From assembly GCA_022072615.1 (NCBI GenBank), contig JAJVHS010000052.1:1-64000 (forward strand): 64,000 nucleotides of DNA, written 5' to 3'. Below, in pieces: positions 2,729 through 21,589 of the stretch (position 1 is the stretch's first letter; each line of letters opens with the position of its first letter). Made by a program: the position numbers and the translations under genes. The DNA comes from Phycisphaerales bacterium (GTDB lineage: Bacteria > Planctomycetota > Phycisphaerae > Phycisphaerales > UBA1924). The notes beneath the pieces are model-generated. The model did no database searches and was not told where the DNA came from. It worked only from the letters and a program-made list of their open reading frames with translations.

Positions 2729-2854
2729 AGAGGGAATTGGAACACTGAGGACGCAGAGGGAACGGAGGATCACGGAGAGGGAAGTCGAATTGGTGAAAGA
2801 GCGTGCGTTGGTGACCGGTTGACCGAGGCGAGGTCGGTGGGTGGATAGAACGCG

Positions 2855-4537: not shown

Positions 4538-5075
4538 CCACGCCACCACCAGCCCGGTCGCGGTGGACCCGCTCGTGACGCTCCGGAAGCGCACGCGGGT
4601 GCCCGTGCTGGCGGGGACGGCGGCGACCGTGCTCGCGGGGGTTTACGCGCTGTGGCCCGTCTCGATCGAGCCTTTGCCCGCGCCCGTCGAGGTCACGGCA
4701 CAAGGCCCGCAAGAGACGGATCCTCCCCCGGCACCGCCGCTTGATCTTGCGGTCTTCGATGGGCCGATCTGGCTCGCACCCCCACAATCACCAGCACAGA
4801 CAGAAGTCGCCGCCAAGCCCGCGCCACCGCCGCCCCCGCTCAAGCTCGAGCTCTTGGGCATCCTGCGCGAGGGCGACTCGTTCAAGGCCGTGGTGTACGA
4901 CCCCGACACCGACAAGGTCGCGGTGCTCAGCGCCGGAGACACGCTCGCGGGCCGCACCATCAACGCCGTCACCGCCGACACCGTCGCCATCAAGGACGGA
5001 GCGGGCACGCGAACCCTCACCCTCAAGCAGGCCGGCGGGGCTGGGGGTGCTGGGGGTGCTGGGGGTGACGGATGA
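4524..5075 (+). CDS. Hypothetical GspC/PilP-like inner-membrane protein
   Basis: Overlaps gspE by 14 nt; single TM (VLAGTAATVLAGVYALWPV), Pro-rich linker, small beta domain LELLGILREGDSFKAVVYDPDTDKVAVLSAGDTLAGRTI. Confidence 0.55.
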   Translation: MSRIDHATTSPVAVDPLVTLRKRTRVPVLAGTAATVLAGVYALWPVSIEPLPAPVEVTAQGPQETDPPPAPPLDLAVFDGPIWLAPPQSPAQTEVAAKPAPPPPPLKLELLGILREGDSFKAVVYDPDTDKVAVLSAGDTLAGRTINAVTADTVAIKDGAGTRTLTLKQAGGAGGAGGAGGDG

Positions 5076-6061: not shown

Positions 6062-6795
6062 AGCTGTCCACCGTCGTGCTGCCCGTGCTGGTCGGGGTCG
6101 GTGCCGTGATCGCGATCTCCTGGTCGTACCAATACGCCTCCCAGCAGCGCCGGGCCCACGCGGCGGCCCGCGACCTGTACCTGGCGACCTCGGGCCAGCT
6201 TGGCGAGCTCGCCTCGCTCAAGGCCCGGTATCCCGCGTTCGCGGCGTCTGATGCCCCCACGGAGGACCTGACCCGGCGGGTCTCCAGGGTGATCTCGGCG
6301 GCGGGGCTGGCATCGTCCGTGCTGAGCAACGTCTCGCCCGACTCTGACCAGCCCGCGAGTTCGGCCACGTCCGCGGGCGGCACGCCGCTGTACCTGCGGC
6401 GCTCGGCGCGTCTGACGCTGGAGGGGGTGACGATGCCGCAGCTGGGGAGGTTCCTCGAGGCGTGGCGAACGGCAGAGCCGGGCTGGGTGGTCACCAGCAT
6501 CGACCTGGCCGCGACCTCGGGCTCAAGCGGCGGCTCGCGGATCAAGACCCCCGAGGGCGGGGCCGCCCCCGGGCGTGACCGGCCGCTGCGGGCCCTGCTC
6601 GCGGTCGAGGCGATCGTGGCCGCGGGCACGGGCGCGGAGGCAGAGGCGCCCGGCACGGGCTTGCCCACGAGCCAAGGGACGCTTGAGCCGCGGGAGAGCG
6701 ACGCCGGCGGGCGAGCAGCCCGCCGCCAACCTGATACCTTGCCCGACGACCCGGGGGTCAACGGGCGGGCCGAACTGATCGAGGAGCCGCGCTGA
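6058..6795 (+). CDS. Hypothetical GspM/PilO-like protein
   Basis: ATGA overlap; N-terminal TM, coiled region, small C-terminal domain; operon position. Confidence 0.5.
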   Translation: MKLSTVVLPVLVGVGAVIAISWSYQYASQQRRAHAAARDLYLATSGQLGELASLKARYPAFAASDAPTEDLTRRVSRVISAAGLASSVLSNVSPDSDQPASSATSAGGTPLYLRRSARLTLEGVTMPQLGRFLEAWRTAEPGWVVTSIDLAATSGSSGGSRIKTPEGGAAPGRDRPLRALLAVEAIVAAGTGAEAEAPGTGLPTSQGTLEPRESDAGGRAARRQPDTLPDDPGVNGRAELIEEPR

Positions 6796-7403
6796 TGGAT
6801 CGAGGGCATCGGGAAACGTCATCCCCCATCACGCTCCTGGCCATCCTGGTCGGCGCGTGCGTGGCGGTGAGCATCGGCGGGTGCGGCTCGCCCCGCGCCA
6901 GCGGGCCCTACAGCACCCAGTCGGCCGAAGCCCGCGACCCGCGCAAGGCCGACGAACTGAACGCCCGGGCAGCGGACGTGATCGACCGGGACCCACAGCA
7001 GGCCGAGGCGCTCCTGAGGGAGGCGCTGACCGCCGACATCTACCACGGGCCGGCCCACAACAACCTCGGCACGCTCTACCTGGCCCAGGGCAAGCTCTAC
7101 GAGGCGGCGAGCGAGTTCGAGTGGGCCCGCAAGCTGCTGCCCGGGCATCCCGACCCGCGCATGAACCTGGCCCTCACGCTCGAGTCCGCCGGCCGCACCG
7201 ACGAGGCCCTGGCGACCTACGAGACCGCGCTCGAGGTCTATCCCCAGCATCTGCCCAGCATGCAGGCGCTCGCGCGGCTGCGCGTGCGGTCGGGCATGAC
7301 CGGCGACCGGACCAGGGAGCTCCTGCAGCAGGTTGCCTTCAAGAGCGAAGACGCCCAGTGGCGCGACTGGGCGAGAGTGCAGCTCGCGAAGGAAGATCTT
7401 TGA
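6795..7403 (+). CDS. TPR-repeat lipoprotein
   Basis: Lipobox-like SIGGC; TPR repeats (AHNNLGTLYLAQGKLYEAASEFEWARKLLPGHPDPRMNLALTLESAGRTDEALATYETAL). Confidence 0.8.
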   Translation: MDRGHRETSSPITLLAILVGACVAVSIGGCGSPRASGPYSTQSAEARDPRKADELNARAADVIDRDPQQAEALLREALTADIYHGPAHNNLGTLYLAQGKLYEAASEFEWARKLLPGHPDPRMNLALTLESAGRTDEALATYETALEVYPQHLPSMQALARLRVRSGMTGDRTRELLQQVAFKSEDAQWRDWARVQLAKEDL

Positions 7404-7494
7404 TCTAGCGACAAAGGCTATCCAGAGTCGGTTCTCTGGCGTCAATCACAACGGGTGAAACAGCACTGGTTTTCAAGAGTTTCGAGGAGGGTCA

Positions 7495-9273
7495 ATGCAG
7501 TCCCTATCAATGATCTCGATCTACAATTTCAAGTCCTGTAAAATGCTAGACAACGTTGAATTCGACGACTTCACACCATTGGTCGGGTACAACAACGCCG
7601 GAAAGTCGAACGTCCTAGCCGCAGTTTTCTGGCTTTTGCGTAAGTCGGTCCTTCAAGACACGGCTTTCTTTGACCCGAAAGTTCCGGTCCGCGTCGAAGC
7701 TCGCATCACGGGTCTGACGCAACCCGTCATTGAGAATCTGGGCGCTGCACATAAACCGAAGATCGATCCGTTCATCAAGGATGGCGTGCTCACAATCCAG
7801 CGGGAGCAGCCCAGGCCAGGGGGGGCGGTCAGTGACATCAAGCTCAGAGTGAGGGACCCACAAAAGCCCGCATCGGACGCTATGGCGTGGAAAGAGAATC
7901 CGTCAGGGATCGACAACGCCATTGCGGCACTTTTTCCGGAACCGATCTCCATTGGAGCGATGGAGGATGCGACCAAAGATATCGGCAAGTTTGAGACCGG
8001 TTCGACCATCGGGAAACTCATCGCCAAATTAATGGCGGCGGTCAAGGACACACAGGGCAAACAGATCGCCAGTCGCCTGGACGAACTGCGAAAACTACTG
8101 GAAGCAGAGGGAGTCGAGCGAGCGCCGGAACTCTCGGCGTTCGATGCCCGCGCAAACAGCATCGTCGCGGAGTTTTTTCCAGGTATCGAGGTCAAGGTCC
8201 ACGTGCCCGCTCCAGAAATCGCATCCGTGTTCAAGGCCGGAACCATCCGCGTGTATGAACGAGTCGGACAAGGGAAGGTCGATGCTGTCGGGCGTGACGT
8301 CTCATCGTTGGGCCATGGGGCTCAGCGTGCGATCCAGATGGCGCTCATCCGTCAGCTTGCCGAGACTGACGAGGCAAGTAAAGGGGGCAGGACGCTCTTG
8401 CTCATTGATGAGCCGGAGCTTTACATGCACCCTCAGGCGGTCGCCAAGGTCCGAAGCGCGCTGCGCAAGTTGTCGCATGGACCATACCAAGTGCTGTTCA
8501 CGACCCACTCGCCCTTGATGATCGGCAGGGATGAACTCGGCGCAGTTCTCGTTCTCTGCAAACGAGACGGCAGCGGCACCACAAAGCGGAAACGCCTATC
8601 TCAAGCGATCTCGGCACTCAGGCAAGATGCACAAGCTCAGCTTGACGAGTTGTTTAGCGTCGAAGGCGCGGGGCAAGTGCTTTTCTCCGATCGCGTCATA
8701 TTGGCCGAGGGCAAGACCGAGCGGGAGTTGATCCCCGACCTTTTCCAGTCCTTGTTTGGCGTGGAGCCGGCCGATCGCCGAATCGGTTTCATTCCGGTTG
8801 AGGGCGCGGGCAACGTCGCCAAGTGTCTCATGGTCCTCGCGCAAATGGACATTCCCGCTCGAGCGCTTGTTGATTTCGACTATGCGTTCCGATCAGCGGT
8901 GGCGGCGGGCTTCCTTTCTGATGCCGATCCAGATATCGCGGCGTGCAGAAGCATCTGCCAAGAGATCGCTGTTCAGGTGGGGGGAGCGATCGCACCGGAT
9001 GGCTTTTTTCAGCGCGACAAGAAGCGAGAGTGCTTCGAGGCACTGGCCTCGCATTCGCGTGCCACGAACGCGATCATGTCGCTGCATGCGAAACTAAAGG
9101 GGCGCGGGATCTGGCTGTGGACAAGAGGATCAATCGAGTCACATCTTGGGCTTCGCTCGAAGGATTACCAGGCCTGGAACACGCTTCGTCAAGATCTGCG
9201 AAAACGCAAACTTGCGGCGGTCGCCGACAGCACGGGCGTGAGCGACTGCCTCTCCTGGCTTGCCGGGGATTGA
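7495..9273 (+). CDS. OLD-family ATP-dependent endonuclease (AAA ATPase + TOPRIM)
   Basis: N-terminus ISIYNFKSCKMLDNVEFDDFTPLVGYNNAGKSNVLAAV; Walker B-like LLLIDEPELYMHPQ; TOPRIM start DRVILAEGKTERELIPDL. Confidence 0.88.
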   Translation: MQSLSMISIYNFKSCKMLDNVEFDDFTPLVGYNNAGKSNVLAAVFWLLRKSVLQDTAFFDPKVPVRVEARITGLTQPVIENLGAAHKPKIDPFIKDGVLTIQREQPRPGGAVSDIKLRVRDPQKPASDAMAWKENPSGIDNAIAALFPEPISIGAMEDATKDIGKFETGSTIGKLIAKLMAAVKDTQGKQIASRLDELRKLLEAEGVERAPELSAFDARANSIVAEFFPGIEVKVHVPAPEIASVFKAGTIRVYERVGQGKVDAVGRDVSSLGHGAQRAIQMALIRQLAETDEASKGGRTLLLIDEPELYMHPQAVAKVRSALRKLSHGPYQVLFTTHSPLMIGRDELGAVLVLCKRDGSGTTKRKRLSQAISALRQDAQAQLDELFSVEGAGQVLFSDRVILAEGKTERELIPDLFQSLFGVEPADRRIGFIPVEGAGNVAKCLMVLAQMDIPARALVDFDYAFRSAVAAGFLSDADPDIAACRSICQEIAVQVGGAIAPDGFFQRDKKRECFEALASHSRATNAIMSLHAKLKGRGIWLWTRGSIESHLGLRSKDYQAWNTLRQDLRKRKLAAVADSTGVSDCLSWLAGD

Positions 9274-9450
9274 TCCCTCAGGGTCTCAGGTGACCGTTCG
9301 GCGCAGTGGTCTCCATCGCAATCCTCGTGTGCGCACTAGGTTTGTGTCGCACGCGCGCGAGTGGAGTCCGTCCAGCCGAGCCGGCCAGCTGACCGAGATC
9401 CGCGACGCGAGCATCGGTCCGCAGCCCCTGCTCAAGCACGTGTTTGCCGG

Positions 9451-10181
9451 TTAGGCCCGCCTGTCCAGCAACCGCTTGCCCTCGTATTTGATCTCGTCGC
9501 TCCGCTGCGGGATGACCTGCACGATGGCGCGGCGTTCGAGCCAGGCACGCACCTTCGGGTAGCTGTACCCCTTGTCGCCGGCGACCTTCAGCGGCCAGCC
9601 CGTCCACCGGGGCGGACGCACCTTCTCCATCAGCTCGACGAACGCCTTGCTCTCGTGGGCCTGGCCCGCGGTGACGACGGCGGCCAAGGGAAGGGCGTTG
9701 CCGTCAACGACCAGGTGGAACTTTGATCCCCACCCGCCTCGGCTGCGACCCAGCGCGTGGTCATGGTGTTTCCCTGCGAGTTCTTCGCTTTTTTCGAAGC
9801 ACCGGCGGCCGCGCGGGAGGCACGCACGCTGCTGCCATCCACGCACCACAGGTCCCAGTCGATGTACCCGTCCTTGTCTAGGCGGATCCGCAGCGCCTTG
9901 AGCACGCGGTCGAACGTGCCGTCCTTGCGCCAGCGGTTGAAGCGGTGGTACACGCTGCCCCACTTGCCGTAACGCTCGGGCAGGTCACGCCACGGCGAGC
10001 CGGTGCGCAGGACCCACAGGATCCCGTCGAACATCAGCCGGTGGTCGTTCCACTTCCCGCCGCGTTTCTGCGTCGGGAGCAGGGGCTCGATCAACCGCCA
10101 CTGCGCCTCGTTGAGATCACCACGACCCTGCTTGCGTCCGGCTGCCGGCATCGCTGGCCTCCTTGCCCGATGCCAGATCAT
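9451..10181 (-). mobile_element. IS5-family (IS427-like) transposase in two overlapping frames joined by a -1 frameshift; C-terminus missing
   Basis: Frame 1 (10181->): LNEAQWRLIEPLLPTQKRGGKWNDHRLMFDGILWVLRTGSPWRDLPERYGKWGSVYHRFNRWRKDG; frame 2: KFHLVVDGNALPLAAVVTAGQAHESKAF...KVAGDKGYSYPKVRAWL. Frames switch at the A6 run (T6 on + strand, 9789-9794). ORF stops at ...YEGKRLLDRRA, before the usual NVxERxxGWLKE region. Confidence 0.85.
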
Positions 10182-10447
10182 CCCACGCAGACAGCCCCCG
10201 CGCCACTCTCACGCCATACACGATCTCATCCCGCCCGCGCCGAACGTGCGCCGTACAAAGGATCCGTCAGACAGAGCCTAGTAGTTCATAACTCTCGGAA
10301 CCTCCCCTCGATCGATATCGCGCTGGAAGGTGGCGTTACCTGAATCATCGGCGAGAACAACACCGGCAACGGGGCGTACCCAATGTGCTAAATCGGTGCA
10401 AATTGCAGGGGCGACCTCCGAGATGAAACGATGCCTATCGTGTGGCT

Positions 10448-10654
10448 ATGGCTAAGAAACCAAGCAATCACGGAAAGCCCATCACGCGTGCGGTCGTCAA
10501 GCAGGTACGTCAGCTCGCAAACGAGAATACGCCTACTCGAGTGATTGGCTTGAAGACCGGTCGGACGGAAGCCTCAGTGAGAGCGATCGCTACTACGAAC
10601 GACATCTCGTTGAAACCAACGAATCAGCGACCATACAACCGTCGTGCAAAGTGA
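10448..10654 (+). CDS. Small conserved hypothetical protein (~68 aa)
   Basis: MAKKPSNHGKPITRAVVKQVRQLANENTPTRVIGLKTGRTEASVRAIATTNDISLKPTNQRPYNRRAK; reminiscent of short SLKPTNQxPYNRR bacterial proteins. Confidence 0.6.
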   Translation: MAKKPSNHGKPITRAVVKQVRQLANENTPTRVIGLKTGRTEASVRAIATTNDISLKPTNQRPYNRRAK

Positions 10655-10659
10655 CTTGA

Positions 10660-10965
10660 CGACGGGGGGGCTTCATCCACCCTCACGCTCATCACCAGCC
10701 CGTGGCGGTTCTCGGTGACCGCGTGCCCGCTGTGGCACAGGAACGCGCCGACGCCGTCGCCCTTCCTGTACAGCTTCGCCTCGGGGTCGGTGGTGCTGCG
10801 GTGCGTGGCGTTGGTGCGACGCTCGCCCCTTGAAGTCGACGCTCGGGGTGCCGCCTCCACCCGATGCGTCGTCATCGCGTTCGTTCTTCGACGCTTTCTT
10901 CTCAATCTTCTTCAGGCTCTTGAGGTTGGTGAAGCAGGCCATCGAGGCGGGCGAGGAGCACTTCA
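10660..10965 (-). pseudogene. Decayed IS5-type transposase fragment
   Basis: Minus-strand SLKKIEKKASKNERDDDASGGGGTPSVDFKG in one frame continues as ERRTNATHRSTTDPEAKLYRKGDGVGAFLCHSGHAVTENRHGLVMSV in another, matching the common transposase core (DFKGxxRxNxTHxSTTDPEAxLYRKG...MENRxGLV). Confidence 0.7.
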
Positions 10966-11186
10966 CGCGGCAACGGCGGAGACCAGCTGCTCAGCCACGA
11001 CGTCGTTCTTGCGTCGGCCGCGTCGACGTCACGGTCGTGACGCAGAGTGTCCCCCAGGTCGTTGTGCGGGTCGTGGCCGCCCGTGTCGATGAGCAGGTCC
11101 TGGTCCTGGAGGTGGTCCCGGTCTGACGAAGGGAGGTGCCAAGAGAGCTCGGGAGCGGGCATCAATGGGTGGTCAAACTCGGTGTC

Positions 11187-11238: not shown

Positions 11239-12369
11239 TCAAGAGCCCTGTACATCGGTGGAGACGCGATTGCGGGTATCGGCTGGAATTTGATCTGCTT
11301 CGAGCGAGTTCCGCGTAGTGGCGTCGGACCGCCATGTCGACTGCGCCTGCTGCCCACCCTCCCGTCCGGGCCGCTGTCGGCCAACGCGGGCGAACCATCT
11401 GTTCCAAAGAAACGCCAGGAGCCGGTCCTCACACTGTGCAGCGTGGACGGCGGCCTCCTCGGCCCAGCCATGACGCCGGGCATCTTCGGCAGCAAGTACC
11501 CAGTAGATTGCTTCCAGAGGTGGCGGCAGTGATGGGCTCCGGGTGGTGCGAGGCTTGCGCTGGTTCACTCCGCGTACGAGATCGCTCGCGGCTTTGGCCA
11601 ACGCGTTCCAGCCTGTCTGACTCTCTCGCCAGGATAAACGAATATCCATCCCGCGCGGCGGCTTCGGTGCCTTGTTTGCAACATTCAGTTTCGCAAGATC
11701 GTGTCCGTAGGCGTGGAGGCTGTTGACCACATGAACATACCGCCCGACATCCACGCCCATCCATCCTGCTAACACTTCCTGGAGGTACGTAAACTGCACT
11801 GCGTTGTGCGGGAACCCCAAGAAGATATCGTTGCTGCGGCAGATCTGCATCCACTCCAGACGCCCATTGATCATTCGAAGACATGACAGGACGTTACAGG
11901 GGATGTCTCCCGCGCGGGGCCTGCCCGTTGCGAACGGGAGGTCGGTGGTGGGAGACCAGATCGAGAGCACTACTTGCCGCGAGCTGGGATTCCGATCCAA
12001 TACACGCCTAGCGCGGTCAAGCTGGTCCACACCGAACTGCCCGCGAAGCCTCTTGCCGTAAGCCCCGTGCGCATCGCCGCTCGTGCCCACGAACTTGGGG
12101 TACTGTCGGTTCCAGTGCCGGAGGAACGCAACGTCATTGCGGCCGGCCAGAATCCACACGACCTCGGCCAGAGCAAACGCCACGTTCAGAGCAGGGATGC
12201 GAGAGATCACCCAACGCTGTCGTGGGTCCTTTAGCTCAAGAGCACAGTGGAGCAGCTCGCGAGTACGTCCACCGCGCGACTCGGTTTCGACGGATTCGTC
12301 AACGCAAAGCAAAGCGGTTGTCGCCTTCCTCCATGCACCATCCGCGGATGTTGACGAGAAGACCCTCAT
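11239..12369 (-). CDS. Thymidylate synthase-superfamily protein (TS-like 2; candidate dUMP hydroxymethylase-type)
   Basis: DQLDRARRVLDRNPSSRQVVLSIWSPTTD...GDIPCNVLSCLRMINGRLEWMQICRSNDIFLGFPHNAVQFTYLQEVLAGWMGVDVGRYVHVVNSLHAYGHDL: TS fold with PC active-site motif. ATG at 12369 overlaps the upstream stop (ATGA). Confidence 0.8.
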   Translation of the reverse strand: MRVFSSTSADGAWRKATTALLCVDESVETESRGGRTRELLHCALELKDPRQRWVISRIPALNVAFALAEVVWILAGRNDVAFLRHWNRQYPKFVGTSGDAHGAYGKRLRGQFGVDQLDRARRVLDRNPSSRQVVLSIWSPTTDLPFATGRPRAGDIPCNVLSCLRMINGRLEWMQICRSNDIFLGFPHNAVQFTYLQEVLAGWMGVDVGRYVHVVNSLHAYGHDLAKLNVANKAPKPPRGMDIRLSWRESQTGWNALAKAASDLVRGVNQRKPRTTRSPSLPPPLEAIYWVLAAEDARRHGWAEEAAVHAAQCEDRLLAFLWNRWFARVGRQRPGREGGQQAQSTWRSDATTRNSLEADQIPADTRNRVSTDVQGS

Positions 12370-13469
12370 TGTGCGATTGCGGCAACCTGCGCTGCAACTC
12401 TGTCGTTGATACCCCACTTAGGTGGAAACCAGAGCGTGATCGACTGCGGCCTAGCCTTGAAGATCTGCTTGATCCGAGTGCGTCCGCTGTGGCCGCTCAC
12501 CTCTGGATGTCGGACGCGGGCGTACTTATCAACCTCGCAGAAGAGGTTCTGACAGTCGATCAGTTTGAGGGGACGCCCTCCGAGCGGTTCGAAGACAAGC
12601 CCGCGCTCCTCGAATTCCTGCTGCTGGCGATCAGCCATTACCTTGATAATTTCGGCCTCTGATAGACCACCGCGATCGACAAAACACTTCGCGATGCCAT
12701 CCCGCGCTCCAGGCCCAGGCACGACGAAGGACCCCTCGTCGAAGTCGATTATCGTGGAGTAGTTCAGATCGATCGCGAGCTGGAATGCGAGGAATGGACC
12801 GAGCGTGGGATACGAGCGGAGAAGCTCGTACACGGCCGCGAGGGACCTTGCCCGGTCGAGATGGGTAGTCAGGCGATCTCGCATCATGTATTCAATCAGG
12901 GCTAAATGGTTCCGGTGTTTCTCCGAAGCTCCGAAAGCCGAGCTCCCCGAGGGCATGATGTATGCGGCCGAGTAGATCACCACCCCCAATCCTCGTGCCT
13001 TCGACAGTACGTCCGCATAGCGTCGCGCATTGAATCGAGCCCAAGTCGGAACACCGAGCTTGGCTACAAGCAATTCCCAGGTCTCGATCTTGTTGAACAG
13101 CTTGAAGAGCAAGATGCGGAAGGCGACCTCCTCCGCAATCTGGCTGCCGTCGTAGATGACATTTCGAATGAGATATTGGCTTACACGATCAGCTGCCCGG
13201 TAGGCGTTGGTGAACCGATGTTTCCTCAGGATCCAGTCTGTCGTCCAGGGCGCGGAAAGGCCTCGGACGCGTCGCAGCAGCATTGCCTGACGTTCGGTAG
13301 CGAAACGCCAGTACGTGTCGTATACGGCGGACGGCTTCGCCGGGTCGAGTCGAGAGAAAACAAGGAGTCTGCGTGAACTGGGCGATGGTCCGGCACTGCG
13401 TGTGCGCGGAGAGCGTACGGTGCCGCCGCGAGAAAAGGACGAGTGGGGAAATGGGATGGCCATTGTCAT
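12366..13469 (-). CDS. 5-hmdU DNA kinase helical-domain (HMUDK_hel-like; formerly 'alpha-glutamyl/putrescinyl thymine pyrophosphorylase') protein
   Basis: VYDTYWRFATERQAMLLRRVRG...PWTTDWILRKHRFTNAYRAADRVSQYLIRNVIYDG...EEVAFRILLFKLFNKIETWELL. ATGA overlap with the preceding kinase gene. Confidence 0.75.
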   Translation of the reverse strand: MTMAIPFPHSSFSRGGTVRSPRTRSAGPSPSSRRLLVFSRLDPAKPSAVYDTYWRFATERQAMLLRRVRGLSAPWTTDWILRKHRFTNAYRAADRVSQYLIRNVIYDGSQIAEEVAFRILLFKLFNKIETWELLVAKLGVPTWARFNARRYADVLSKARGLGVVIYSAAYIMPSGSSAFGASEKHRNHLALIEYMMRDRLTTHLDRARSLAAVYELLRSYPTLGPFLAFQLAIDLNYSTIIDFDEGSFVVPGPGARDGIAKCFVDRGGLSEAEIIKVMADRQQQEFEERGLVFEPLGGRPLKLIDCQNLFCEVDKYARVRHPEVSGHSGRTRIKQIFKARPQSITLWFPPKWGINDRVAAQVAAIAQ

Positions 13470-14083
13470 GCCTCAATACGTCGGCGCTGTTGCCGCCAGG
13501 CGTTGACAATCTGCGCCGCCCGATCTTGGGGACTAACGTGTTGATCCAGAAACTGAATAATCCTGAACGTCTCGCGCAATGACGCGAGAAACCCGTCGTA
13601 TTGTGCTCGGACCAGTTGGAACTCTGCATTGGGCTCACCCACCGGTGGCGACAGGAAGACACAGGCCAGCGCTGGCGTCGTGAATGACCAGTGCTGTCTG
13701 GCTAGTTGCTCCAACAGGCCAAGCGTTGCCTCATCTACCCCCGTCACGCGTCCGTACACGATGGTCGACCACCAGAAACGGTCCATCACGACGGTCTCAC
13801 CAGCGTCGACTGCAGGGCGGATGTCTCGACTAATAGCATCGACATGCGCCGCCGCGTGGAGCAGCTGCAGACTCGTGGGGTGAAATCCGCTTAGAGCGTA
13901 GGAAGATGGTTCGTGGTGCAGTCTGTGCACGAGGTGGCCAAGAGTACCCGGCTTCGTCCCGGGAAAAGAGACGAGGCGCGCTCGCACGCCGGTGCGCTGA
14001 AGCTGGGTTAGCAGCGCCGAAGCGACGGTACTCTTGCCCGCTCCGTCGGGTCCTTCTAGTACAATGACGCGTCCGTCGCTCAT
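13466..14083 (-). CDS. Thymidylate kinase-like dNMP kinase
   Basis: MSDGRVIVLEGPDGAGKSTVASALLTQLQ P-loop; VVMDRFWWSTIVYG DRF/W motif; ATGA overlap at 14080-14083. Confidence 0.85.
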   Translation of the reverse strand: MSDGRVIVLEGPDGAGKSTVASALLTQLQRTGVRARLVSFPGTKPGTLGHLVHRLHHEPSSYALSGFHPTSLQLLHAAAHVDAISRDIRPAVDAGETVVMDRFWWSTIVYGRVTGVDEATLGLLEQLARQHWSFTTPALACVFLSPPVGEPNAEFQLVRAQYDGFLASLRETFRIIQFLDQHVSPQDRAAQIVNAWRQQRRRIEA

Positions 14084-14937
14084 CGCATACTTCCTGGCGC
14101 CGGGAGTTGAGTATCCCCTTCAGAAACTCCCGGGACCGCCATCAGGGCTTCGGCCAAACCAGCTACACGACCCTTGGGGATCCCGAGTCGTGCGAGCGCA
14201 ACGATAACCGTTACCCGGTGCAATTTCAGTCTCATCTCGTGAGCCATGAAGCCTGCCAGGTGGCACAATCCGAGGTAGTTGCCGTATCCACGATCAAAGA
14301 TGTATTCCGTGGGATAAAAGGCCGTCAGGCTGAAGCCCTCATCCGAATACCCGCAACTCACCTGCTGCAGGCAGGGGAAGCCGGCCCGTGAGGAACCTGT
14401 GTGGTCCTTGGCAGGGTCATAGATCCCCACCTGCAGGGCGCTTCGGCGCGTCGAGCCATCATCGCGCTCCCACCAACGGAGAATCTCCTCCAACTGATTG
14501 ACGCGACGGAATTCGAGTTCGGCGCCGTGCACACCGGTCGCATCGATCATGCGAGCGAAGTACGTTCCCTGCCTGTTGAGCCGCGACAGTTTCTTCAGCC
14601 GCGGCAGCACCTTGTTCAGATAGCGTTCGAACAGCTCGGAAGCCGGTCGCGGATTAGCTGGCGACCAACTGCCTCTGGGGAAGATCGTTCGGGCGGTATC
14701 TGCAACTGCCTGAACCTTTCGTTTCTGTTGGTTCCGATTGATCGTCTCAATCGCCGCGTCCAGAGCTATCCGAATTTGAGAGACCTCCATGGGATCGCCG
14801 GATTCATCGAAGTCGGTGATTGAGATCAGCTGCGGGCAGCTGAGCGCCGCCCCGGCCGCCGCCCGCACACGCAGGAATGCCTGCGCCCAAGCTGTGGATA
14901 GGTTCCCGCTTGGGACCACAAGAGAGCTACTCGTCAT
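14080..14937 (-). CDS. Thymidylate synthase-superfamily-like protein (TS-like 1, divergent)
   Basis: NQLEEILRWWERDDGSTRRSALQVGIYDPAKD...GFPCLQQVSCGYSDEGFSLTAFYPTEYIFDRGYGNYLGLCHLAGFMAHEM aligns by eye to TS RR/PC/GN..GL motifs. Start at MTSSSLVV (14937). Confidence 0.65.
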   Translation of the reverse strand: MTSSSLVVPSGNLSTAWAQAFLRVRAAAGAALSCPQLISITDFDESGDPMEVSQIRIALDAAIETINRNQQKRKVQAVADTARTIFPRGSWSPANPRPASELFERYLNKVLPRLKKLSRLNRQGTYFARMIDATGVHGAELEFRRVNQLEEILRWWERDDGSTRRSALQVGIYDPAKDHTGSSRAGFPCLQQVSCGYSDEGFSLTAFYPTEYIFDRGYGNYLGLCHLAGFMAHEMRLKLHRVTVIVALARLGIPKGRVAGLAEALMAVPGVSEGDTQLPAPGSMR

Positions 14938-15790
14938 CAGGATCCTCCAGATGGCGGTAGACGGCAGCACCCTCGTACTGCCGAGGCATCACGCGAAGAA
15001 ATGCACTCCAGTCATCACGCCACCGATCTGCCCGCGCCAAGCCGCGGCGCACCGCCTGCACGAGGACATGGGAATGCTCTCTGGCAATGACCCGAACGGC
15101 TCGCCCCTCTACCAAACATTCGGCCGGCAGGATGGCAAGGTCGCCAACGACAAGGTCAATCGCGCGATCGGACCAAAACCTGTCGGCTACAACCAGATCC
15201 TCAGCCACAGGTCTCCCGAGGATCCTCGCCCTGATATCCCTTGGCGCGACTCCGATGAGTCGGTCAAACACTTCGGGGGTGATGGCGCGGATCGTCCAGC
15301 GCAAGTGATGCACAAGAGCGCTGTAACCCACGCCAAGCTGGCCCGCCGCAATGAGGATCTGATCGGCATCGGGGCTCGAGATGTCCCAACTGCGAGCCCG
15401 GAAAGCCCTGGTCACAGCCGCCTGCGGCATCAGCAGGTGCGCAGCAAACATGTCCGCCAGGGTTTCATCCGGATCAGTGTCCATGCCGCTCCGACTCTCG
15501 ACATACTCATCAACGCGAGAGCCGTGCCCAAATATGTGATGGCCGAGCTCGTGTGCGCCGGTAGAATTTTGAAAGCCAGAAGGCCTGTCCGAGCCAATCA
15601 CGATCATCGGAGTAGGTGGACCCGAGTACATTCCGGCGAGACTGGGCAACGGCATGAACCAGACTTCCACATCCAGTAGCGCCGCCAAATCGAGCACGCT
15701 CAGCGCGTGATCCATCGGAATGCCGGCACGCTTACGTACTTCCATCGCGCGACGCAGCGCGAGCCGTGCTGAGTCGAGTGCGAGCTTCAT
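14927..15790 (-). CDS. ImmA/IrrE-family metallo-endopeptidase
   Basis: Zn motif HELGHHIFGHG; DETLADMFAAHLLMPQAAV typical of the family; ATGA overlap with the XRE gene. Confidence 0.92.
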   Translation of the reverse strand: MKLALDSARLALRRAMEVRKRAGIPMDHALSVLDLAALLDVEVWFMPLPSLAGMYSGPPTPMIVIGSDRPSGFQNSTGAHELGHHIFGHGSRVDEYVESRSGMDTDPDETLADMFAAHLLMPQAAVTRAFRARSWDISSPDADQILIAAGQLGVGYSALVHHLRWTIRAITPEVFDRLIGVAPRDIRARILGRPVAEDLVVADRFWSDRAIDLVVGDLAILPAECLVEGRAVRVIAREHSHVLVQAVRRGLARADRWRDDWSAFLRVMPRQYEGAAVYRHLEDPDDE

Positions 15791-16131
15791 CGCACGGCGT
15801 CCTTCTTCTTAACAATGTTCAAGAGCCGGATGACACGTTGGAGATCATCGGGCGCGAGCTTCGAAAGTTCTTTGGCCGCCAACTCGATCTGTGGGTCGAC
15901 AGAAGTGGACTCGGTGGACTTCGTCAACCATGCGATCGAGACTCGATAGTGACCGGCCAACAAAGACAGCTCTTCCGCCGACACGCGCCGTTGGCCTGCC
16001 TCGATCTGGCTTACTGTGGGCCGGTGCCAGTGCATGAGCTTGGCCACCTGACCTTGACTCAGCCCCGCCTGTTCCCGCGCAGCCCTGAGGCGCTTCGCGA
16101 TCTGATCTCGAATGGACTCGGCATCATTCAT
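15787..16131 (-). CDS. XRE-family HTH transcriptional regulator
   Basis: RLRAAREQAGLSQGQVAKLMHWHRPTVSQIEAGQRRVSAEELSLLAGHYRVSIAWL. Start MNDAESIRDQ (16131). Confidence 0.92.
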   Translation of the reverse strand: MNDAESIRDQIAKRLRAAREQAGLSQGQVAKLMHWHRPTVSQIEAGQRRVSAEELSLLAGHYRVSIAWLTKSTESTSVDPQIELAAKELSKLAPDDLQRVIRLLNIVKKKDAVR

Positions 16132-16420
16132 GGGCGACCCCCAAGTTGGCGCCTGCCTGCACGCGCTCCTGAACCCACCTTTGGAGTTCAGCCAGAGTGC
16201 GCATGCGCTTCCCCGTGTCGTGAAGAATGGGATTGAACTCGGGCTCCACTGTGATTCCCAGCCGGGCCTCCAGGTCGCATGCCAGCTCGACCCCGTCCTG
16301 GCTGCACAACCCAGCGGCGTGGAGGTTTGTATCAGCTCCGATCTTCCCATGCATGTTGGCCCGAACCAGTAGTTCGTGAACGATCTGCTCCACGACGGTG
16401 TCCACTTTTCTTGGCGTCAT
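16124..16420 (-). CDS. Acyl/peptidyl carrier protein-like small protein
   Basis: GLCSQDGVELACDLEARLGITV aligns without gaps to the ACP core GADSLDxVELxxxLEexFgi; flanking helices VEQIVHELLV and TLAELQRWVQ. Start MTPRKVD (16420). Confidence 0.55.
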   Translation of the reverse strand: MTPRKVDTVVEQIVHELLVRANMHGKIGADTNLHAAGLCSQDGVELACDLEARLGITVEPEFNPILHDTGKRMRTLAELQRWVQERVQAGANLGVAHE

Positions 16421-16429
16421 CGCAGTTCC

Positions 16430-16446
16430 TTTCGTACGGTACAAAA
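16430..16446 (-). promoter_or_regulatory. 17-bp near-perfect palindrome TTTTGTACCGTACGAAA (candidate XRE operator)
   Basis: Arms TTTTGTAC / GTACGAAA (7 of 8 symmetric) around a central C, between the -10 element and the carrier-protein start. Confidence 0.6.
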
Positions 16447-16474
16447 ATCTTACCGCACCGATCGGACGGGTCAA
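16447..16474 (-). promoter_or_regulatory. sigma70-like promoter TTGACC-N16-TAAGAT
   Basis: Minus strand: TTGACC (16474-16469), 16 nt, TAAGAT (16452-16447). -35 overlaps the stop codon of the upstream dCTP-deaminase-like gene. Confidence 0.5.
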
Positions 16475-17337
16475 CCCCCCGAGGGGTTCGGCACCGTGGA
16501 CGCAGGAGACGTTCCCGGCGGAGGAACGGGAGGCGGCGAACCGGCAGATGTCGCTGCCGGCTGCGGAGTCCCGATGGTGGGGCCGGGAGGCAGGGAGCCG
16601 GTTTGACCTGGACTTGGTGTCGACCCGGCTGAAGTTGGTTCCTTCGAGGGAACAACCCAGTCACCTAAGCGCTGACCGAGCCTGCTCCACGGGAAGCCCT
16701 CCAAAATCAGAGTCACCGCCGCAACCAAGAGGGCTGCAAGCAAACCGATGACCACCATCTTCAGTTCCTTGACCTTGTCGATCTCGTGCTTGATGTGTTG
16801 CTGCACATCGTCGATTTTCTTCTGCAGGTCCGCTGGTGAGACACCGGGCGTTGTGAGCTTGCCAATCAGGTCGGCGGGAATGGAACTCATTCGAGCACGT
16901 GGACCGGAATAGGGGTCCGGGACCTCGTCCATGTCCGCCAGCCACAGGAGGAAGAGCGCGTCACCGCTTTGAAGCGGTTGTGGGACTACGCCGGCGTTGA
17001 ACACCGTGAAGACCAGCCGACCCGTGAAACCCGGATCAACATGAAAACCAGAGACATTCACTAGGCCCGGTAGCTTGACTGAAGACTTCAAGGAAATCAG
17101 CCCTACGGCATTGTGTGGGATCGAGACGAACTCCTTGGTCAGGAGCAGGGCGGTGGCGCCAGGTGGAATCGTTACCAGCTCACCATCGTTGAGCCGTTGC
17201 TTCTGCCTCTCGCCCGACAGGTATGCTTCATGTCCGAGCGAGAGCTCATACGATCCCTGCTTCACACGCGCGGGATCTCCGTCCGGCACGATCTGGGAGA
17301 GCGTTTTGCGAAATCGTTCGGTTCCCCAGAATGACAT
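16471..17337 (-). CDS. dCTP deaminase/dUTPase-fold domain protein with C-terminal TM helix and Pro-rich tail
   Basis: VGLISLKSSVKLPGLVNVSGFHVDPGFTGRLVFTVFNAGVVPQPLQSGDALFLLWL; TM MVVIGLLAALLVAAVTLIL. Confidence 0.8.
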   Translation of the reverse strand: MSFWGTERFRKTLSQIVPDGDPARVKQGSYELSLGHEAYLSGERQKQRLNDGELVTIPPGATALLLTKEFVSIPHNAVGLISLKSSVKLPGLVNVSGFHVDPGFTGRLVFTVFNAGVVPQPLQSGDALFLLWLADMDEVPDPYSGPRARMSSIPADLIGKLTTPGVSPADLQKKIDDVQQHIKHEIDKVKELKMVVIGLLAALLVAAVTLILEGFPWSRLGQRLGDWVVPSKEPTSAGSTPSPGQTGSLPPGPTIGTPQPAATSAGSPPPVPPPGTSPASTVPNPSGG

Positions 17338-17489: not shown

Positions 17490-17861
17490 TCAGCGGCCCG
17501 CGGCCGCGAACTGCCCGCGCTCGACCTTGCGGAACCGGGCGTCCTTGCCCTTGTCGCGGATCTCGCGGATGAGGGCTGCGTAGAGCGTCGCCTGCGGCGT
17601 CTTGCCGCCCGGGCTCTTCCACAGCCCGGCCGCCGCCATGGCGTCGATCAGGTCCTTGGCGTTCATGGGCTTGCCGACCTTCGCCAGGACGATGGCAGCG
17701 GCGTCCAACGCGCTTCGGCGCTTGGGCTTGTCCGGGCTGACCGGCTTGCCCGGGCTCGCCTTGGAAGCGGCCGGTTTCGCAGCGGCTTTGGCCGGCTTGG
17801 TCGAGGCGGGTTTGCGGGTAGGGCTGGCCTGGGCTTTCTTCGGCGTCGTCTTCTTCGACAT
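17490..17861 (-). CDS. HARE-HTH (HB1/ASXL/restriction-endonuclease HTH) domain protein with basic Lys/Ala/Pro tail
   Basis: MSKKTTPKKAQASPTRKPASTKPAKAAAKPAAS... then RRSALDAAAIVLAKVGKPMNAKDLIDAMAAAGLWKSPGGKTPQATLYAALIREIRDKGKDARFRKVERGQFAA. Confidence 0.85.
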   Translation of the reverse strand: MSKKTTPKKAQASPTRKPASTKPAKAAAKPAASKASPGKPVSPDKPKRRSALDAAAIVLAKVGKPMNAKDLIDAMAAAGLWKSPGGKTPQATLYAALIREIRDKGKDARFRKVERGQFAAAGR

Positions 17862-18307
17862 GGCGTTCTCCTTCGAAGGGTGCGTGCCCGCCGCACAGCG
17901 CGGCGGGTGACACATGACGCCCAGCCACCGGCGGGATTGGAAGGCGGCGTGCCAGGAAATCTGTCCCGTGCCCGGGTCCAAGGGAGTTGCCTTGGTCGCC
18001 CCGGGGTTTGCCCACGACCGCCGCGCCCCGCCGGACCCCGGCGCAAGGCCACCCAACCTGCCGCTCGCGAACACGGGCCAACGTGGGCCAACTGGGGGCG
18101 AAGAGGCGCGGGTTCGGGAAGCCCGGGTTCCGGGCTTGCCCGCCCAGCCAAGGTTGATCCCTTGGTGTCGGCGCGGGGGTGCGCCGCGGGGGCGTGACAC
18201 CCGCGCCGTGACACCACCACGCGGCGCTTCCGGGGCGCTTTGGGAAGTCTGACACCCGCCCGCGGGATCGCCGGATCCGTCGAAGAACGTCGGAGTTTTT
18301 CGGGATT

Positions 18308-18376
18308 TGGCGAGCGGGAGCGAACGTGCCGAGTCCGCTTTACGAAAGCATCGCTCTACCGCTGAGCTAAGGTGGC
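18308..18376 (-). tRNA. Truncated/degenerate tRNA-Thr(CGU)-like sequence
   Basis: Minus strand GCCACCTTAGCTCAGCGGTAGAGCGATGCTTTCGTAAAGCGGACTCGGCACGTTCGCTC: good acceptor 5' half, D-arm and anticodon arm with CGT, but no matching 3' acceptor (AGGTGGC) or clean T-stem. Confidence 0.5.
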
Positions 18377-18596
18377 ACGCCGGCTCGGGCGTGCCCGAGC
18401 GGGACCACAAGTATCGGAGGGGTCGGGCCGAGAATCCACCTCCGATCGCCAAGTGGCCGTTGGACCCGGCTCGGTCGGCCGGCCCGTCGCCCTGCGGGGG
18501 GGGGGGTATGACCAGCGCTCGGGCGCGAGCGGACGGGGGTGAGCGTGCGGGCGTTCGCGCGGGGTCACGAGCACGCGAACGGGCCCGGTCACGGGG

Positions 18597-18928: not shown

Positions 18929-19128
18929 GATGCGGCCTCGGCTGGCTGGGAGGTGGTCTGCCGTGCACGGAGACCGCTCGTCGGTTCGCACGGGCAGAGG
19001 GGCTGGCCGCCCCTCTGCAACTCCCCGCTCGAAGGCAAGAGTCAGGGCATCACCTTTCTCAAAGCAGAAAGGTGATGGCACGGCACGGGACTGGCCTGCA
19101 AATCGCTGTGAACGTGATGCCACCTGCC
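18929..19128. repeat. Repeat A copy 1 (~200 bp, several stem-loops)
   Basis: Near-identical to 20081-20286; contains CACGGAGACCGCTCGTCGGTTCGCACGGGCAGAGGGGCTGGCCGCCCCTCTGCAACTCCCCGCTCGAAGGCAAGAGTCAG. Confidence 0.9.
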
Positions 19129-19233
19129 TCCTCGTCCGGCAGCTGGTCAGGGCCTGCTCCACCGTGCTTCGCACCACCTCGTCGAGGTGGCTCCTCACCT
19201 GCTTCGTGTCCACCGGAGATCGGCAGGCTTACA

Positions 19234-19533
19234 TCACGTTATCTCGTCGAGTTCAGCCGAAGACAAATCCCGTACGTGCTCAGCGCTCCGCACAAAGCCT
19301 GCGACGTTCGTCCAACCCAAGCCGGCCAATCTGCTACGGTAAAGTTGAACAAAAACACGAACCGAACCATCTTTGCAGGGTTCAACCCAAGTTGATAGAG
19401 CGCATTGTCCGTCAGAGGTAATTACGATTTGTTCGGTGTGAGACGCATGATTTTGCAGATCACAAAAGGCGAGTAGTTTAAGACCAGCAATAGTATCAGA
19501 AATCAACCCAGCAGCGGACGGTACATCGCTCAT
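19234..19533 (-). CDS. Hypothetical small protein (99 aa)
   Basis: MSDVPSAAGLISDTIAGLKLLAFCDLQNHASHTEQIVITSDGQCALSTWVEPCKDGSVRVFVQLYRSRLAGLGWTNVAGFVRSAEHVRDLSSAELDEIT; sits between repeat A copy 1 and the REP block. Confidence 0.5.
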   Translation of the reverse strand: MSDVPSAAGLISDTIAGLKLLAFCDLQNHASHTEQIVITSDGQCALSTWVEPCKDGSVRVFVQLYRSRLAGLGWTNVAGFVRSAEHVRDLSSAELDEIT

Positions 19534-19611
19534 ATTACTCCCACCGTGTTCTGAGATCGATATGTGGATTGGGCTTTCCAGGACGCTGCGGACCGATGGA
19601 AATGCGAGGCG

Positions 19612-19873
19612 GCAGGTGGCACCGGGGTTCGTCCATCGCGTGGGGGTTTTCCCGCGCCGTGCCACCGAGGTCGCTTCGACCTCGGTGTTCTGGTGCTCGT
19701 ACGCGTCGGCACGGCAGGTGGCACCGGGGTCCGTCCATCGCATGGGGTCTTCCCGCGCCGTGCCACCGGATCGCTTTGATCCCGGTGTCCTGGGTGCTCG
19801 TGCGCGTCGGCACGCTCTTGTTCACACGAACTCCTTCCACCGTGTGCACACCTTCTCATCACCGAGCGGACGG
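19612..19873. repeat. REP/BIME-like block: two units with GGTGGCAC...GTGCCACC palindromes plus a RAYT 3' end
   Basis: Units at 19612-19712 and 19713-19873, related to 20997-21154; minus strand 19873-19822 encodes GNRPLGDEKVCTRWKEFV*. Confidence 0.8.
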
Positions 19874-20080
19874 TTGCCTTCGGATTCCTGCTCGCGACGA
19901 CCCACTCGAACCGAATCCCCGCTCGACCCGCGCCAGTTTACAGAAAGTCGGACCCGCACGGAACAGAATCCGCAGCCGGCCTGGCCGCCCGGGCATGATG
20001 GAATCACTGTTCGAATCGCCGAGCACCCCCTGAGCCGCCGAGCCCGGGTCGCACAGGGCCGATGGACGGCATCCCGACAC

Positions 20081-20286
20081 GGATGCGGCTTCGGCTGGCT
20101 GGAAGTTGGTGCCACCTGCCGTACACGGAGACCGCTCGTCGGTTCGCACGGGCAGAGGGGCTGGCCGCCCCTCTGCAACTCCCCGCTCGAAGGCAAGAGT
20201 CAGGACATCAGCTTTCTCAAAGCGGAAAGGTGATGGCACGGCACGGGACTGTTCTGCAAATCGCTGTGAACGTGATGCCACCTGCC
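20081..20286. repeat. Repeat A copy 2
   Basis: See 18929-19128. Confidence 0.9.
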
Positions 20287-20347
20287 GCGGCTTCAACAGG
20301 AGATATAGTTCGCGGCGTTGAGTGCCACCTGCCACTTGGAATGTGAT

Positions 20348-20977
20348 TCAATCAGAAGCGCTCGCGACGTTGCATGCCGCCCGGCCCTGCTTCTGGGAAT
20401 AGCCTCTACTCCACCATCTGGCCACAGCTCTTGCGGTCAGAACCGCGCACGTAGATACGAGCAACACACGACACCAATGAACTTCATAACTGATACTTTG
20501 ATACGCAGAGATATCGTCGTGAACTGCCCATGATCGCTTCTCGACTAGGTGCCAGCCTCTAGGCATAGCGGATTGGCTGGCGATCTCCGAATTCCTCGCC
20601 ACCGCGTTGTCCAAGAGTGGTCGCATCGATTCCGGTATCGGCCCGATTACGACATCTGCAAAGTTAAGCCATGCTCGCTCCAACTCGGTCTCACTGGTGG
20701 TGCGAAACTTGCCATAAGATCCTCCAAAGTACTGTCGGTTTATACTACAACCTTCTCTAATCATATCGGCATTTCTACACCAAAGGACACGCGACGAAGG
20801 GTCTAGCATTACGAGTCCCGACTTCGGGAGCTCAATATAAGTAGTGTCTAACATAATGAACAATAGTGCCACTGCAGCCAACGCAAAGCAGATGATCCAT
20901 ATGCTCGTGCGAAATAATTGTGTGACCCGCTCCCTAGCCATCCCCATGTCGATCTCCGTCTTCTTCATCATTTGCAT
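20348..20977 (-). CDS. Hypothetical membrane protein (209 aa, two TM helices)
   Basis: MQMMKKTEIDMGMARERVTQLFRTSIWIICFALAAVALLFIMLDTTYIEL...VHWCRVLLVSTCAVLTARAVARWW; AT-richer than its surroundings by eye. Confidence 0.6.
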   Translation of the reverse strand: MQMMKKTEIDMGMARERVTQLFRTSIWIICFALAAVALLFIMLDTTYIELPKSGLVMLDPSSRVLWCRNADMIREGCSINRQYFGGSYGKFRTTSETELERAWLNFADVVIGPIPESMRPLLDNAVARNSEIASQSAMPRGWHLVEKRSWAVHDDISAYQSISYEVHWCRVLLVSTCAVLTARAVARWWSRGYSQKQGRAACNVASASD

Positions 20978-20996
20978 CTTCGTCCCACTTAAAGGG

Positions 20997-21154
20997 CAGG
21001 TGGCACCGGGTTCGTCCGTCGCGTGGGGAGTCTTCCTGCGCCGTGCCACCGGGATCGCTTCGATTCCGGTGTCCTGGTGCTCGTGCGCGTCGGCATGCTC
21101 TTGTTCACACGAACTCCTTCCACCGTGTGCACACCTTCTCATCACCGAGCGGAA
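20997..21154. repeat. REP/BIME-like unit, third copy
   Basis: Matches 19713-19873 over about 155 bp. Confidence 0.8.
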
Positions 21155-21283
21155 GGTTGCGCTCGACCTTCTGCTGGCGCACGCCCATCCACCACCGCAC
21201 GCTCGACCATCTCCAAGCCTCGGGACGCTCGACCAGGCCGCGTTCCAGCGGTTCTTGATGAGTGTACCGGATCTCGCGGTATG
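21105..21283 (-). pseudogene. C-terminal fragment of a REP-associated tyrosine transposase (RAYT, Y1 family)
   Basis: Minus-strand YREIRYTHQEPLERGLVERPEAWRWSSVRWWMGVRQQKVERNLPLGDEKVCTRWKEFV*; (I/Y)xxNPxxxGLVxxPExWxWSS is the classic RAYT tail. Confidence 0.75.
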
Positions 21284-21470
21284 GCTCGGCGGTGCTCGGT
21301 CGATGGGGGAGGAGGGGGCCCGATTCCCTGGGGCTGGCGCCCCAGGCTTCAGTCTGTGGCCGCTTCGCGGCCGAGGATGGAGGATGCGGCAGGTGACGCC
21401 TGAGGGGGTGTGGAGCGGGAGGAAAAGTTCAAAGTTCAAATGGCAAAGTTCAAATAGAAGAACGAGTAGG

Positions 21471-21589
21471 CACTGACCTCGTCGCCGAGCCTCCGAGGTC
21501 AGTGGCACGGGAGGAAAAGTTCAAATGGAGGCAGGCGGGCTGGCGGCACTGACCTCGTCGCCGAGCCTCCGAGGTCAGTGGCACGGGGA
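21471..21589. repeat. Two copies of a palindromic unit CACTGACCTCGTCGCCGAGCCTCCGAGGTCAGTGGCACGG
   Basis: Copies at 21471-21510 and 21547-21586; each folds CACTGACCTCG/CGAGGTCAGTG. Confidence 0.85.

What the first reader, a model, noticed from the sequence alone, without database searches (positions are those of the whole stretch)
11239..17337. Candidate thymidine-modification / nucleotide-defence operon with tightly overlapping genes
Seen: from 16420 down to 11239 on the minus strand, seven ORFs overlap successively (16124/16131, 15787/15790, 14927/14937, 14080/14083, 13466/13469, 12366/12369), with a dCTP-deaminase-fold gene 50 bp upstream. Family knowledge: TS homologues making 5-hmdUMP, a dNMP kinase, and a 5-hmdU DNA kinase are the committed steps of thymidine hypermodification in some phages. 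Inference: this is a bacterial chromosomal system using related chemistry, joined to a carrier protein and an XRE/ImmA switch. No dedicated DNA polymerase, methylase or restriction gene is visible, so the substrate (free nucleotide, DNA or a small molecule) is open.
Basis: partly seen in the sequence, partly recalled or inferred. Interest (0 to 1): 0.93.

Follow-up and report, generated by a model that had tools for sequence, protein, structure and literature searches.

The report
Carrier-linked thymidine-modification operon, probably phage defence
Eight tightly packed bacterial genes combine phage-style enzymes for altering the DNA base thymine with a protein-arm carrier and a damage-sensing switch; the same gene set recurs in many bacterial phyla and on plasmids, so it is a real, mobile and chemically uncharacterised system, most likely an inducible defence against phages.

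Summary
In detail: eight minus-strand genes (17337-11239), six successive overlaps. Profile and fold searches support two thymidylate-synthase-fold proteins, a TMPK-like kinase, a 5-hmdU-kinase helical protein (PF18723, E 1.6e-109), an ImmA/XRE pair and a phosphopantetheine carrier. Corrections: the PF18723 protein has no P-loop; the kinase beside it is fused to it in 11 other loci. The 'dCTP deaminase' lacks the catalytic Glu and looks membrane-anchored. Among 80 relatives from many phyla, 66 carry ImmA plus the second TS; of these 65 have XRE, 64 the carrier, 44 a holo-ACP synthase, nearly always in the same order. The locus is patchy, differs in position between same-genus genomes, and occurs on conjugative plasmids. 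The PF18723 model matches phage thymidine-hypermodification proteins, including amino acid:DNA transferases. Gene order kinase-PF18723-TS equals that of phage PaMx11. A 2026 paper validated E. coli anti-phage systems containing TS and 5-hmdU-kinase domains. Best reading: a DNA-damage-inducible base-modification system, probably defensive, with an unexplained carrier step. Substrate, modification and defence activity are untested; a PADLOC scan of flanking genes showed no defence-island enrichment.

The parts
16471..17337 (-). DCD/dUTPase-fold protein, 288 aa, with C-terminal hydrophobic (TM-like) segment and Pro-rich tail; deaminase catalytic Glu absent; predicted nucleotide-binding membrane protein
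   Evidence: PF22769 E 2.5e-13; PDB dCTP deaminases E 5e-13; Glu position is S/A/R/T in all 38 sequences and all have a hydrophobic segment
16124..16420 (-). Acyl/peptidyl-carrier-like protein, 98 aa; attachment Ser40 in GLCSQDGVEL
   Evidence: PF00550 weak, E 0.003; Ser conserved in about 98% of aligned carriers; carrier in 64/66 core loci, AcpS neighbour in 44/66
15787..16131 (-). XRE/Cro-type HTH repressor, 114 aa (CapH-like)
   Evidence: PF01381 E 5e-16; PADLOC capH E 1.2e-12
14927..15790 (-). ImmA/IrrE metallopeptidase, 287 aa (CapP-like), HExxH intact (H80 E81 H84)
   Evidence: PF06114 E 5.9e-10; PADLOC capP E 5.5e-14; H80, E81, H84, E109 invariant in relatives
14080..14937 (-). TS2: divergent thymidylate-synthase-fold protein, 285 aa; keeps Cys189 and Asn220, lacks the RSxD motif of TS
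   Evidence: AlphaFold model pLDDT 91; Foldseek to TS/MilA E 5e-8 to 1e-7, prob 1.0; hhalign to the TS family E 1.6e-4; present in 68/80 loci
13466..14083 (-). TMPK-like P-loop kinase, 205 aa; separate here, fused N-terminally to the PF18723 protein in 11 other loci
   Evidence: PF02223 E 7e-15; fused/split states
12366..13469 (-). 5-hmdU DNA kinase helical-domain protein (PF18723), 367 aa, no P-loop; transferase-like fold
   Evidence: PF18723 E 1.6e-109; model pLDDT 88, core mostly 90-98; Foldseek hits to HMUDK_hel, aGPT-PPlase1 and amino acid:DNA transferase proteins
11239..12369 (-). Thymidylate-synthase-family enzyme, 376 aa, probable dUMP hydroxymethylase; catalytic Cys158 and uracil-type Asn189 kept
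   Evidence: PF00303 E 8e-23; phrog_5131 E 4e-55; MilA CMP 5-hydroxymethylase E 6e-20; 39% identical to PaMx11 gp51

Best explanation
This is a mobile, inducible uracil/thymine base-modification system of bacteria, most likely an anti-phage (or anti-mobile-element) defence. Shown: gene content, co-conservation, folds, intact peptidase motif, catalytic Cys in both TS proteins, Ser in the carrier, patchy mobile distribution. Inferred, step by step: (1) the XRE protein represses the operon; ssDNA from phage replication or DNA damage activates the ImmA peptidase, which cuts XRE, as CapP cuts CapH. (2) The TS protein P0001 makes 5-hydroxymethyl-dUMP, and the kinase P0003 phosphorylates the nucleotide (or, with P0002, the hydroxymethyl group of the base). 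(3) The modified nucleotide enters newly made DNA. (4) The PF18723 protein, related in fold to amino acid:DNA transferases, acts on the base in DNA, helped by TS2 and with a group supplied or held by the phosphopantetheine carrier. (5) Replicating invader DNA becomes non-functional, or the cell arrests. The membrane DCD-like protein would bind, not deaminate, a nucleotide and act as sensor or effector.
For: Core ACP-XRE-ImmA-TS2-PF18723 collinear in 63/65 loci across many phyla. Kinase-PF18723-TS gene order equals gp49-gp50-gp51 of phage PaMx11, a phage whose gp46 is a solved 5-PmdU glycinyltransferase. The confident viral fold matches are thymidine-hypermodification proteins, apart from a few unnamed or uncharacterised phage proteins. 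XRE/ImmA match capH/capP, whose ssDNA-triggered cleavage is described in PMC13373217 and PMC10904395. TS is not the housekeeping enzyme, since the genome has ThyX. Patchy presence, 5/101 relatives and 4/369 in another class; different position in one same-genus genome, no match in another; conjugative plasmids, with ABC-3C, SIR2, caspase and pYEATS neighbours in rhizobia. DefensePredictor (PMC13092281) validated defence systems with TS and 5-hmdU kinase domains.
Against: No assay of DNA, nucleotide or phage resistance. Flanking genes are not richer in PADLOC families than control regions of the same contigs. No enzyme that loads a carrier (adenylation or acyltransferase) is among the recurrent neighbours. 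TS is present in only 14/80 loci and kinase in 19/80, so step 2 as written cannot be universal. The window carrier has Cys instead of the usual Asp before the Ser, and no AcpS lies beside it. The sequence link between PF18723 and the amino acid:DNA transferase of PaMx11 is not significant alone. No inverted-repeat operator was found near 16420.
Confidence: 0.5

Rival explanations
1. Self-modification rather than defence: the operon hypermodifies thymine in the DNA of the mobile element or host (protection from restriction, or an epigenetic mark), as phages do, and is switched on when the element moves.
For: Same enzyme families as phage self-protection pathways; presence on conjugative plasmids; ImmA/XRE switches are typical of mobile elements (established knowledge).
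Against: No replication or transfer genes in the conserved core; an inducible, repressed operon would not mark DNA continuously; the core lacks the usual phage end-step enzymes.
Confidence: 0.2
2. Free-nucleotide defence: the enzymes make a modified or depleted dNTP or a nucleotide signal (not DNA) that stops phage replication or triggers the membrane DCD-like protein as effector; MazG/MazG_C in most relatives points the same way.
For: DCD-like membrane protein without deaminase Glu; MazG-MazG_C in 60/80 loci, nearly exclusive with TS; a second PF18723 context with TIR and SLOG nucleotide-sensing domains; MazG, MazG-C and dUTPase domains predicted defensive in PMC13092281.
Against: The PF18723 fold points to DNA-acting transferases; the DCD-like gene is in only 38/80 loci.
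Confidence: 0.2
3. Small-molecule biosynthesis: a nucleoside antibiotic or related product built on the carrier, as in mildiomycin (MilA) clusters.
For: Nearest solved homologue of P0001 is MilA; carrier plus AcpS.
Against: No adenylation, condensation, export or resistance gene among recurrent neighbours; ImmA/XRE regulation and phage homology fit poorly.
Confidence: 0.07

Closest known systems
Phage thymidine hypermodification pathways (PaMx11; also M6, ViI, SP10, phiW-14)
   Same: TS-family hydroxymethylase, P-loop kinase and PF18723 helical protein; same gene order as PaMx11 gp49-gp51
   Different: Bacterial/plasmid locus with XRE/ImmA, carrier, second TS, DCD-like membrane protein; kinase is TMPK-like, not like gp49; no amino acid:DNA transferase, PLP enzyme or glycosyltransferase in the operon
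DefensePredictor-validated E. coli anti-phage system(s) with TS, dNMP kinase, 5-hmdU kinase and NMAD domains (PMC13092281)
   Same: TS, dNMP kinase and 5-hmdU kinase domains
   Different: No NMAD domain in the window; the paper's main text mentions no carrier protein; the E. coli sequences could not be found or compared here
CapH/CapP (CBASS-associated) and PprI/DdrO regulation
   Same: Adjacent XRE repressor and ImmA-type metallopeptidase with intact HExxH; profile matches
   Different: Operon controlled is a base-modification set; ssDNA response untested
SLOG/TIR nucleotide-centric conflict systems (Burroughs et al. 2015, cited in PMC13092281; not readable here)
   Same: PF18723 and MazG_C occur with TIR, LD_cluster2 and Nmad2 in a second context
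   Different: Window type has XRE/ImmA/carrier/TS2 instead

Membership tests
Phage-type thymidine hypermodification pathway | TS-family enzyme making 5-hmdUMP | tested here: inconclusive
   P0001 is TS-family with catalytic Cys and uracil-type Asn, 39% identical to PaMx11 gp51; product not assayed
Phage-type thymidine hypermodification pathway | 5-hmdU DNA kinase: P-loop kinase with PF18723 helical domain | tested here: met
   Helical protein at E 1.6e-109 and adjacent P-loop kinase, fused in 11 relatives; kinase subtype differs from PaMx11 gp49; activity untested
Phage-type thymidine hypermodification pathway | End-step transferase (amino acid:DNA transferase, aGPT-PPlase, glycosyltransferase) | tested here: not met
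   None of the eight proteins matches these Pfam families; the PF18723 protein only resembles them in fold
Phage-type thymidine hypermodification pathway | Modified thymine in DNA | not testable with these tools
   Needs LC-MS
TS/dNMPk/5hmdUk/NMAD defence system of PMC13092281 | TS, dNMP kinase and 5-hmdU kinase domains together | tested here: met
   that these share one E. coli unit is inferred from the legend and system counts
TS/dNMPk/5hmdUk/NMAD defence system of PMC13092281 | NMAD domain | tested here: not met
   No Nmad family in the eight proteins; Nmad2 was seen only in the other PF18723 context
TS/dNMPk/5hmdUk/NMAD defence system of PMC13092281 | Protects against phage | not testable with these tools
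   Needs plating assays
CapH/CapP-type ssDNA-responsive switch | XRE repressor next to M78/ImmA peptidase with HExxH | tested here: met
CapH/CapP-type ssDNA-responsive switch | ssDNA-triggered cleavage of the repressor | not testable with these tools
   Needs biochemistry
Phosphopantetheine carrier protein | Conserved attachment Ser | tested here: met
   Ser conserved in about 98% of aligned carriers incl. window Ser40
Phosphopantetheine carrier protein | Asp before the Ser (DSL) | tested here: not met
   Window has Cys39; 84% of the main carrier cluster have Asp
Phosphopantetheine carrier protein | Dedicated AcpS nearby | tested here: not met
   Present in 44/66 relatives, not in the window; the one ACPS match in the genome is on another contig
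dCTP deaminase | Catalytic Glu (E138 of E. coli Dcd) | tested here: not met
   Thr in window; S/A/R/T in all 38

The most novel reading that the evidence does not exclude
A carrier-dependent nucleobase modification: TS2, which keeps the catalytic Cys and uracil-binding Asn but lacks the RSxD motif that helps hold free dUMP, joins a uracil base through a folate-derived methylene to the phosphopantetheine arm of the carrier (or to an amino acid on it), and the PF18723 transferase places the product on DNA. A thiol-templated route from TS chemistry to DNA, possibly a transient DNA-carrier conjugate, would be new.
Probability: 0.13. Interest if true: 0.95.

Novelty: new variant of a known kind. 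Interest (0 to 1): 0.76.

Why it matters
It links three worlds not usually seen together: phage thymidine hypermodification, DNA-damage-switched bacterial immunity, and carrier-protein (acyl/peptidyl) biochemistry, in one compact cassette spread over many phyla. It gives a clear set of genes in which to look for a new base modification or modified nucleotide, suggests what the TS and 5-hmdU-kinase domains in a newly validated defence system might do, and makes a precise testable prediction about the role of the carrier.

Tried and rejected
Defence-island enrichment: 80 flanking ORFs versus 80 control ORFs from the same 20 contigs, scanned with PADLOC at 1e-20, gave similar numbers of hits in both (by eye, roughly eight members each), so enrichment is not claimed; adjacency on plasmids is anecdotal. 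The E. coli relative of the validated system: three distant DNA searches, no match. Housekeeping role for P0001: rejected because the genome has ThyX. Sequence proof that the PF18723 protein is an amino acid:DNA transferase: not significant; only the fold comparison supports it. An operator palindrome near the carrier start: none found; one promoter-like match at 16474-16447 is at chance level. PF18723 and TS2 against PDB by sequence profile: no meaningful match. Papers that would show how much was described before (Iyer 2013, Lee 2022, Burroughs 2015) are not held, so novelty is judged on a partial library.
Full report
Observation. All eight genes and all six overlaps are exactly as described. 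The set runs 17337 to 11239 on the minus strand: DCD-like, carrier, XRE, ImmA, TS2, kinase, PF18723, TS.

Identity of the parts. P0001 is TS-family (PF00303 E 8e-23; phrog_5131 E 4e-55), nearest in PDB to the CMP 5-hydroxymethylase MilA (E 6e-20) and 39% identical to PaMx11 gp51. It keeps Cys158, the R-S-N-D motif, Asn189, His219 and Tyr221, all but the Ser invariant in 14 aligned members; by established TS knowledge Asn at that place means uracil rather than cytosine. The genome has ThyX elsewhere and only this PF00303 match, so P0001 is not the ordinary thymidylate source. P0004 (TS2) has no Pfam match, but its AlphaFold model (pLDDT 91) is TS-fold (Foldseek E 5e-8, probability 1.0) and a profile comparison aligns its invariant Cys189 and Asn220 with the TS catalytic Cys and Asn, while the RSxD motif is missing. 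P0003 is a TMPK-like P-loop kinase. P0002 is a very strong PF18723 member (E 1.6e-109) without a P-loop; 28 relatives from many phyla are 55-68% identical to it, with dozens of invariant residues. In 11 loci kinase and PF18723 protein are one fused chain, in 8 they are separate nearby genes, so the window shows a split form of the HMUDK architecture. P0005/P0006 are an ImmA/XRE pair that match capP/capH. P0007 is a carrier with the attachment Ser. P0008 has the dCTP deaminase fold but not the catalytic Glu, and has a hydrophobic C-terminal segment, as do its relatives (38 sequences in all; hydropathy only).

Fold of PF18723. The model (pLDDT mostly above 90 from residue 50 on) has as best PDB match the 5-phosphomethyl-dU glycinyltransferase of PaMx11 (8z2m, E 0.1, probability 0.77); HhH DNA glycosylases and a queuine-salvage enzyme are among the next, weaker matches. 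Against viral models the matches with probability 0.99-1.00 are 5-hmdU DNA kinases, PF18723 proteins, aGPT-PPlase1 proteins and amino acid:DNA transferases, plus a few unnamed or uncharacterised phage proteins. Sequence comparison with PaMx11 gp46 alone is not significant. I take it as probable, not proven, that PF18723 is a DNA-base-acting transferase relative.

Conservation. 80 loci from genome contigs were scanned with profiles of the window proteins and with unbiased ORF clustering. Of 66 loci with ImmA and TS2, 65 have XRE, 64 the carrier, 44 a holo-ACP synthase, 49 MazG-MazG_C, 32 the DCD-like protein, 17 the kinase, 11 the TS; the core order is kept in 63 of 65. TS and MazG nearly exclude one another (MazG in 2 of 14 loci with TS versus 58 of 66 without; Fisher p 1.5e-7), TS goes with the kinase (p 1.9e-6), carrier with AcpS (p 1e-4); these p values ignore relatedness. 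Pfam confirms MazG_C (PF18722), ACPS (PF01648), Nmad2, TIR and radical SAM among neighbours. A second, different context (TIR, SLOG LD_cluster2, Nmad2, MazG_C) also contains PF18723.

Mobility. PF18723 is in 5 of 101 relatives and 4 of 369 genomes of another class. The window host shares a genus with Phycisphaeraceae isolate ACE_PLA10 (L002 = G002; same coordinates). A third congener, G001, has no PF18723 match; it is syntenic with the window from about 23.6 to 48 kb but matches stop before the operon, and G002 carries the operon some 250 kb from that site. Plasmid copies in Sinorhizobium, Rhizobium and Allocoleopsis lie on conjugative plasmids, with ABC-3C, SIR2/AAA, DNA methylase, caspase and pYEATS neighbours in the rhizobial ones. 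A controlled PADLOC scan, however, showed no enrichment.

Mechanism. Shown versus inferred steps are listed in the best explanation. The switch is inferred from CapH/CapP and PprI/DdrO, where ssDNA triggers cleavage of the repressor (PMC13373217; PMC10904395). The defence role is inferred from PMC13092281, which reports validated E. coli defence systems containing a 5-hydroxymethyluracil kinase and a thymidylate synthase domain; by its system counts and legend these probably lie in one unit with a dNMP kinase and NMAD. The carrier is the least understood and most interesting part: it is as conserved as the repressor, has its own AcpS in two thirds of core loci, and yet no loading enzyme recurs beside it.

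Limits. The 80 loci are the closest to the query by design; ORFs are stop-to-stop; membrane prediction is by hydropathy; many loci are MAGs. No biochemical function was tested. The literature library is partial, so earlier description of the carrier-containing operon cannot be excluded.

Noticed in passing
window 18958-21587: Dispersed direct repeats (171 nt x2, 104 nt x2, 70 nt x3, 43 nt x2) between a HARE-HTH gene (17490-18452) and the conserved backbone; looks like a variable junction.
   Followed up: partly
window 17490-18452: HARE-HTH gene upstream of the operon; a homologue also lies beside the operon in G002 but at the other end.
   Followed up: no
window 7495-10181: OLD-family ATPase with TOPRIM domain followed by an IS4/5-type transposase remnant in two frames.
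   Followed up: no
window 1478-7403: Type II secretion-like genes (secretin, T2SSE, T2SSC); the T2SSE is 69% identical over its length to one in a family member (G004) but only distantly matched in the two same-genus genomes.
   Followed up: partly
L024, L028, L029, L032, L035, L036, L040, L071, L077: Second PF18723 context without carrier or ImmA, mostly with TIR+SLOG (LD_cluster2), TIR, Nmad2 and MazG_C proteins: a separate conflict-type operon.
   Followed up: partly
L007, L025, L037, L043, L051: Variants with a radical SAM gene downstream of PF18723 in place of the MazG/TS modules.
   Followed up: no
L111 (Rhizobium ruizarguesonis pRlX4) 4851-10993: Variant with AcpS, a small protein in the carrier position, XRE, ImmA, C1 peptidase, DCD and PF18723 but no annotated TS, next to caspase and pYEATS genes.
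   Followed up: no
L108 (Brevibacterium phage LuckyBarnes) 1846-5861: Phage PF18723 gene beside TS and two glycosyltransferases without an annotated kinase nearby, arguing that PF18723 is not strictly a kinase part.
   Followed up: no
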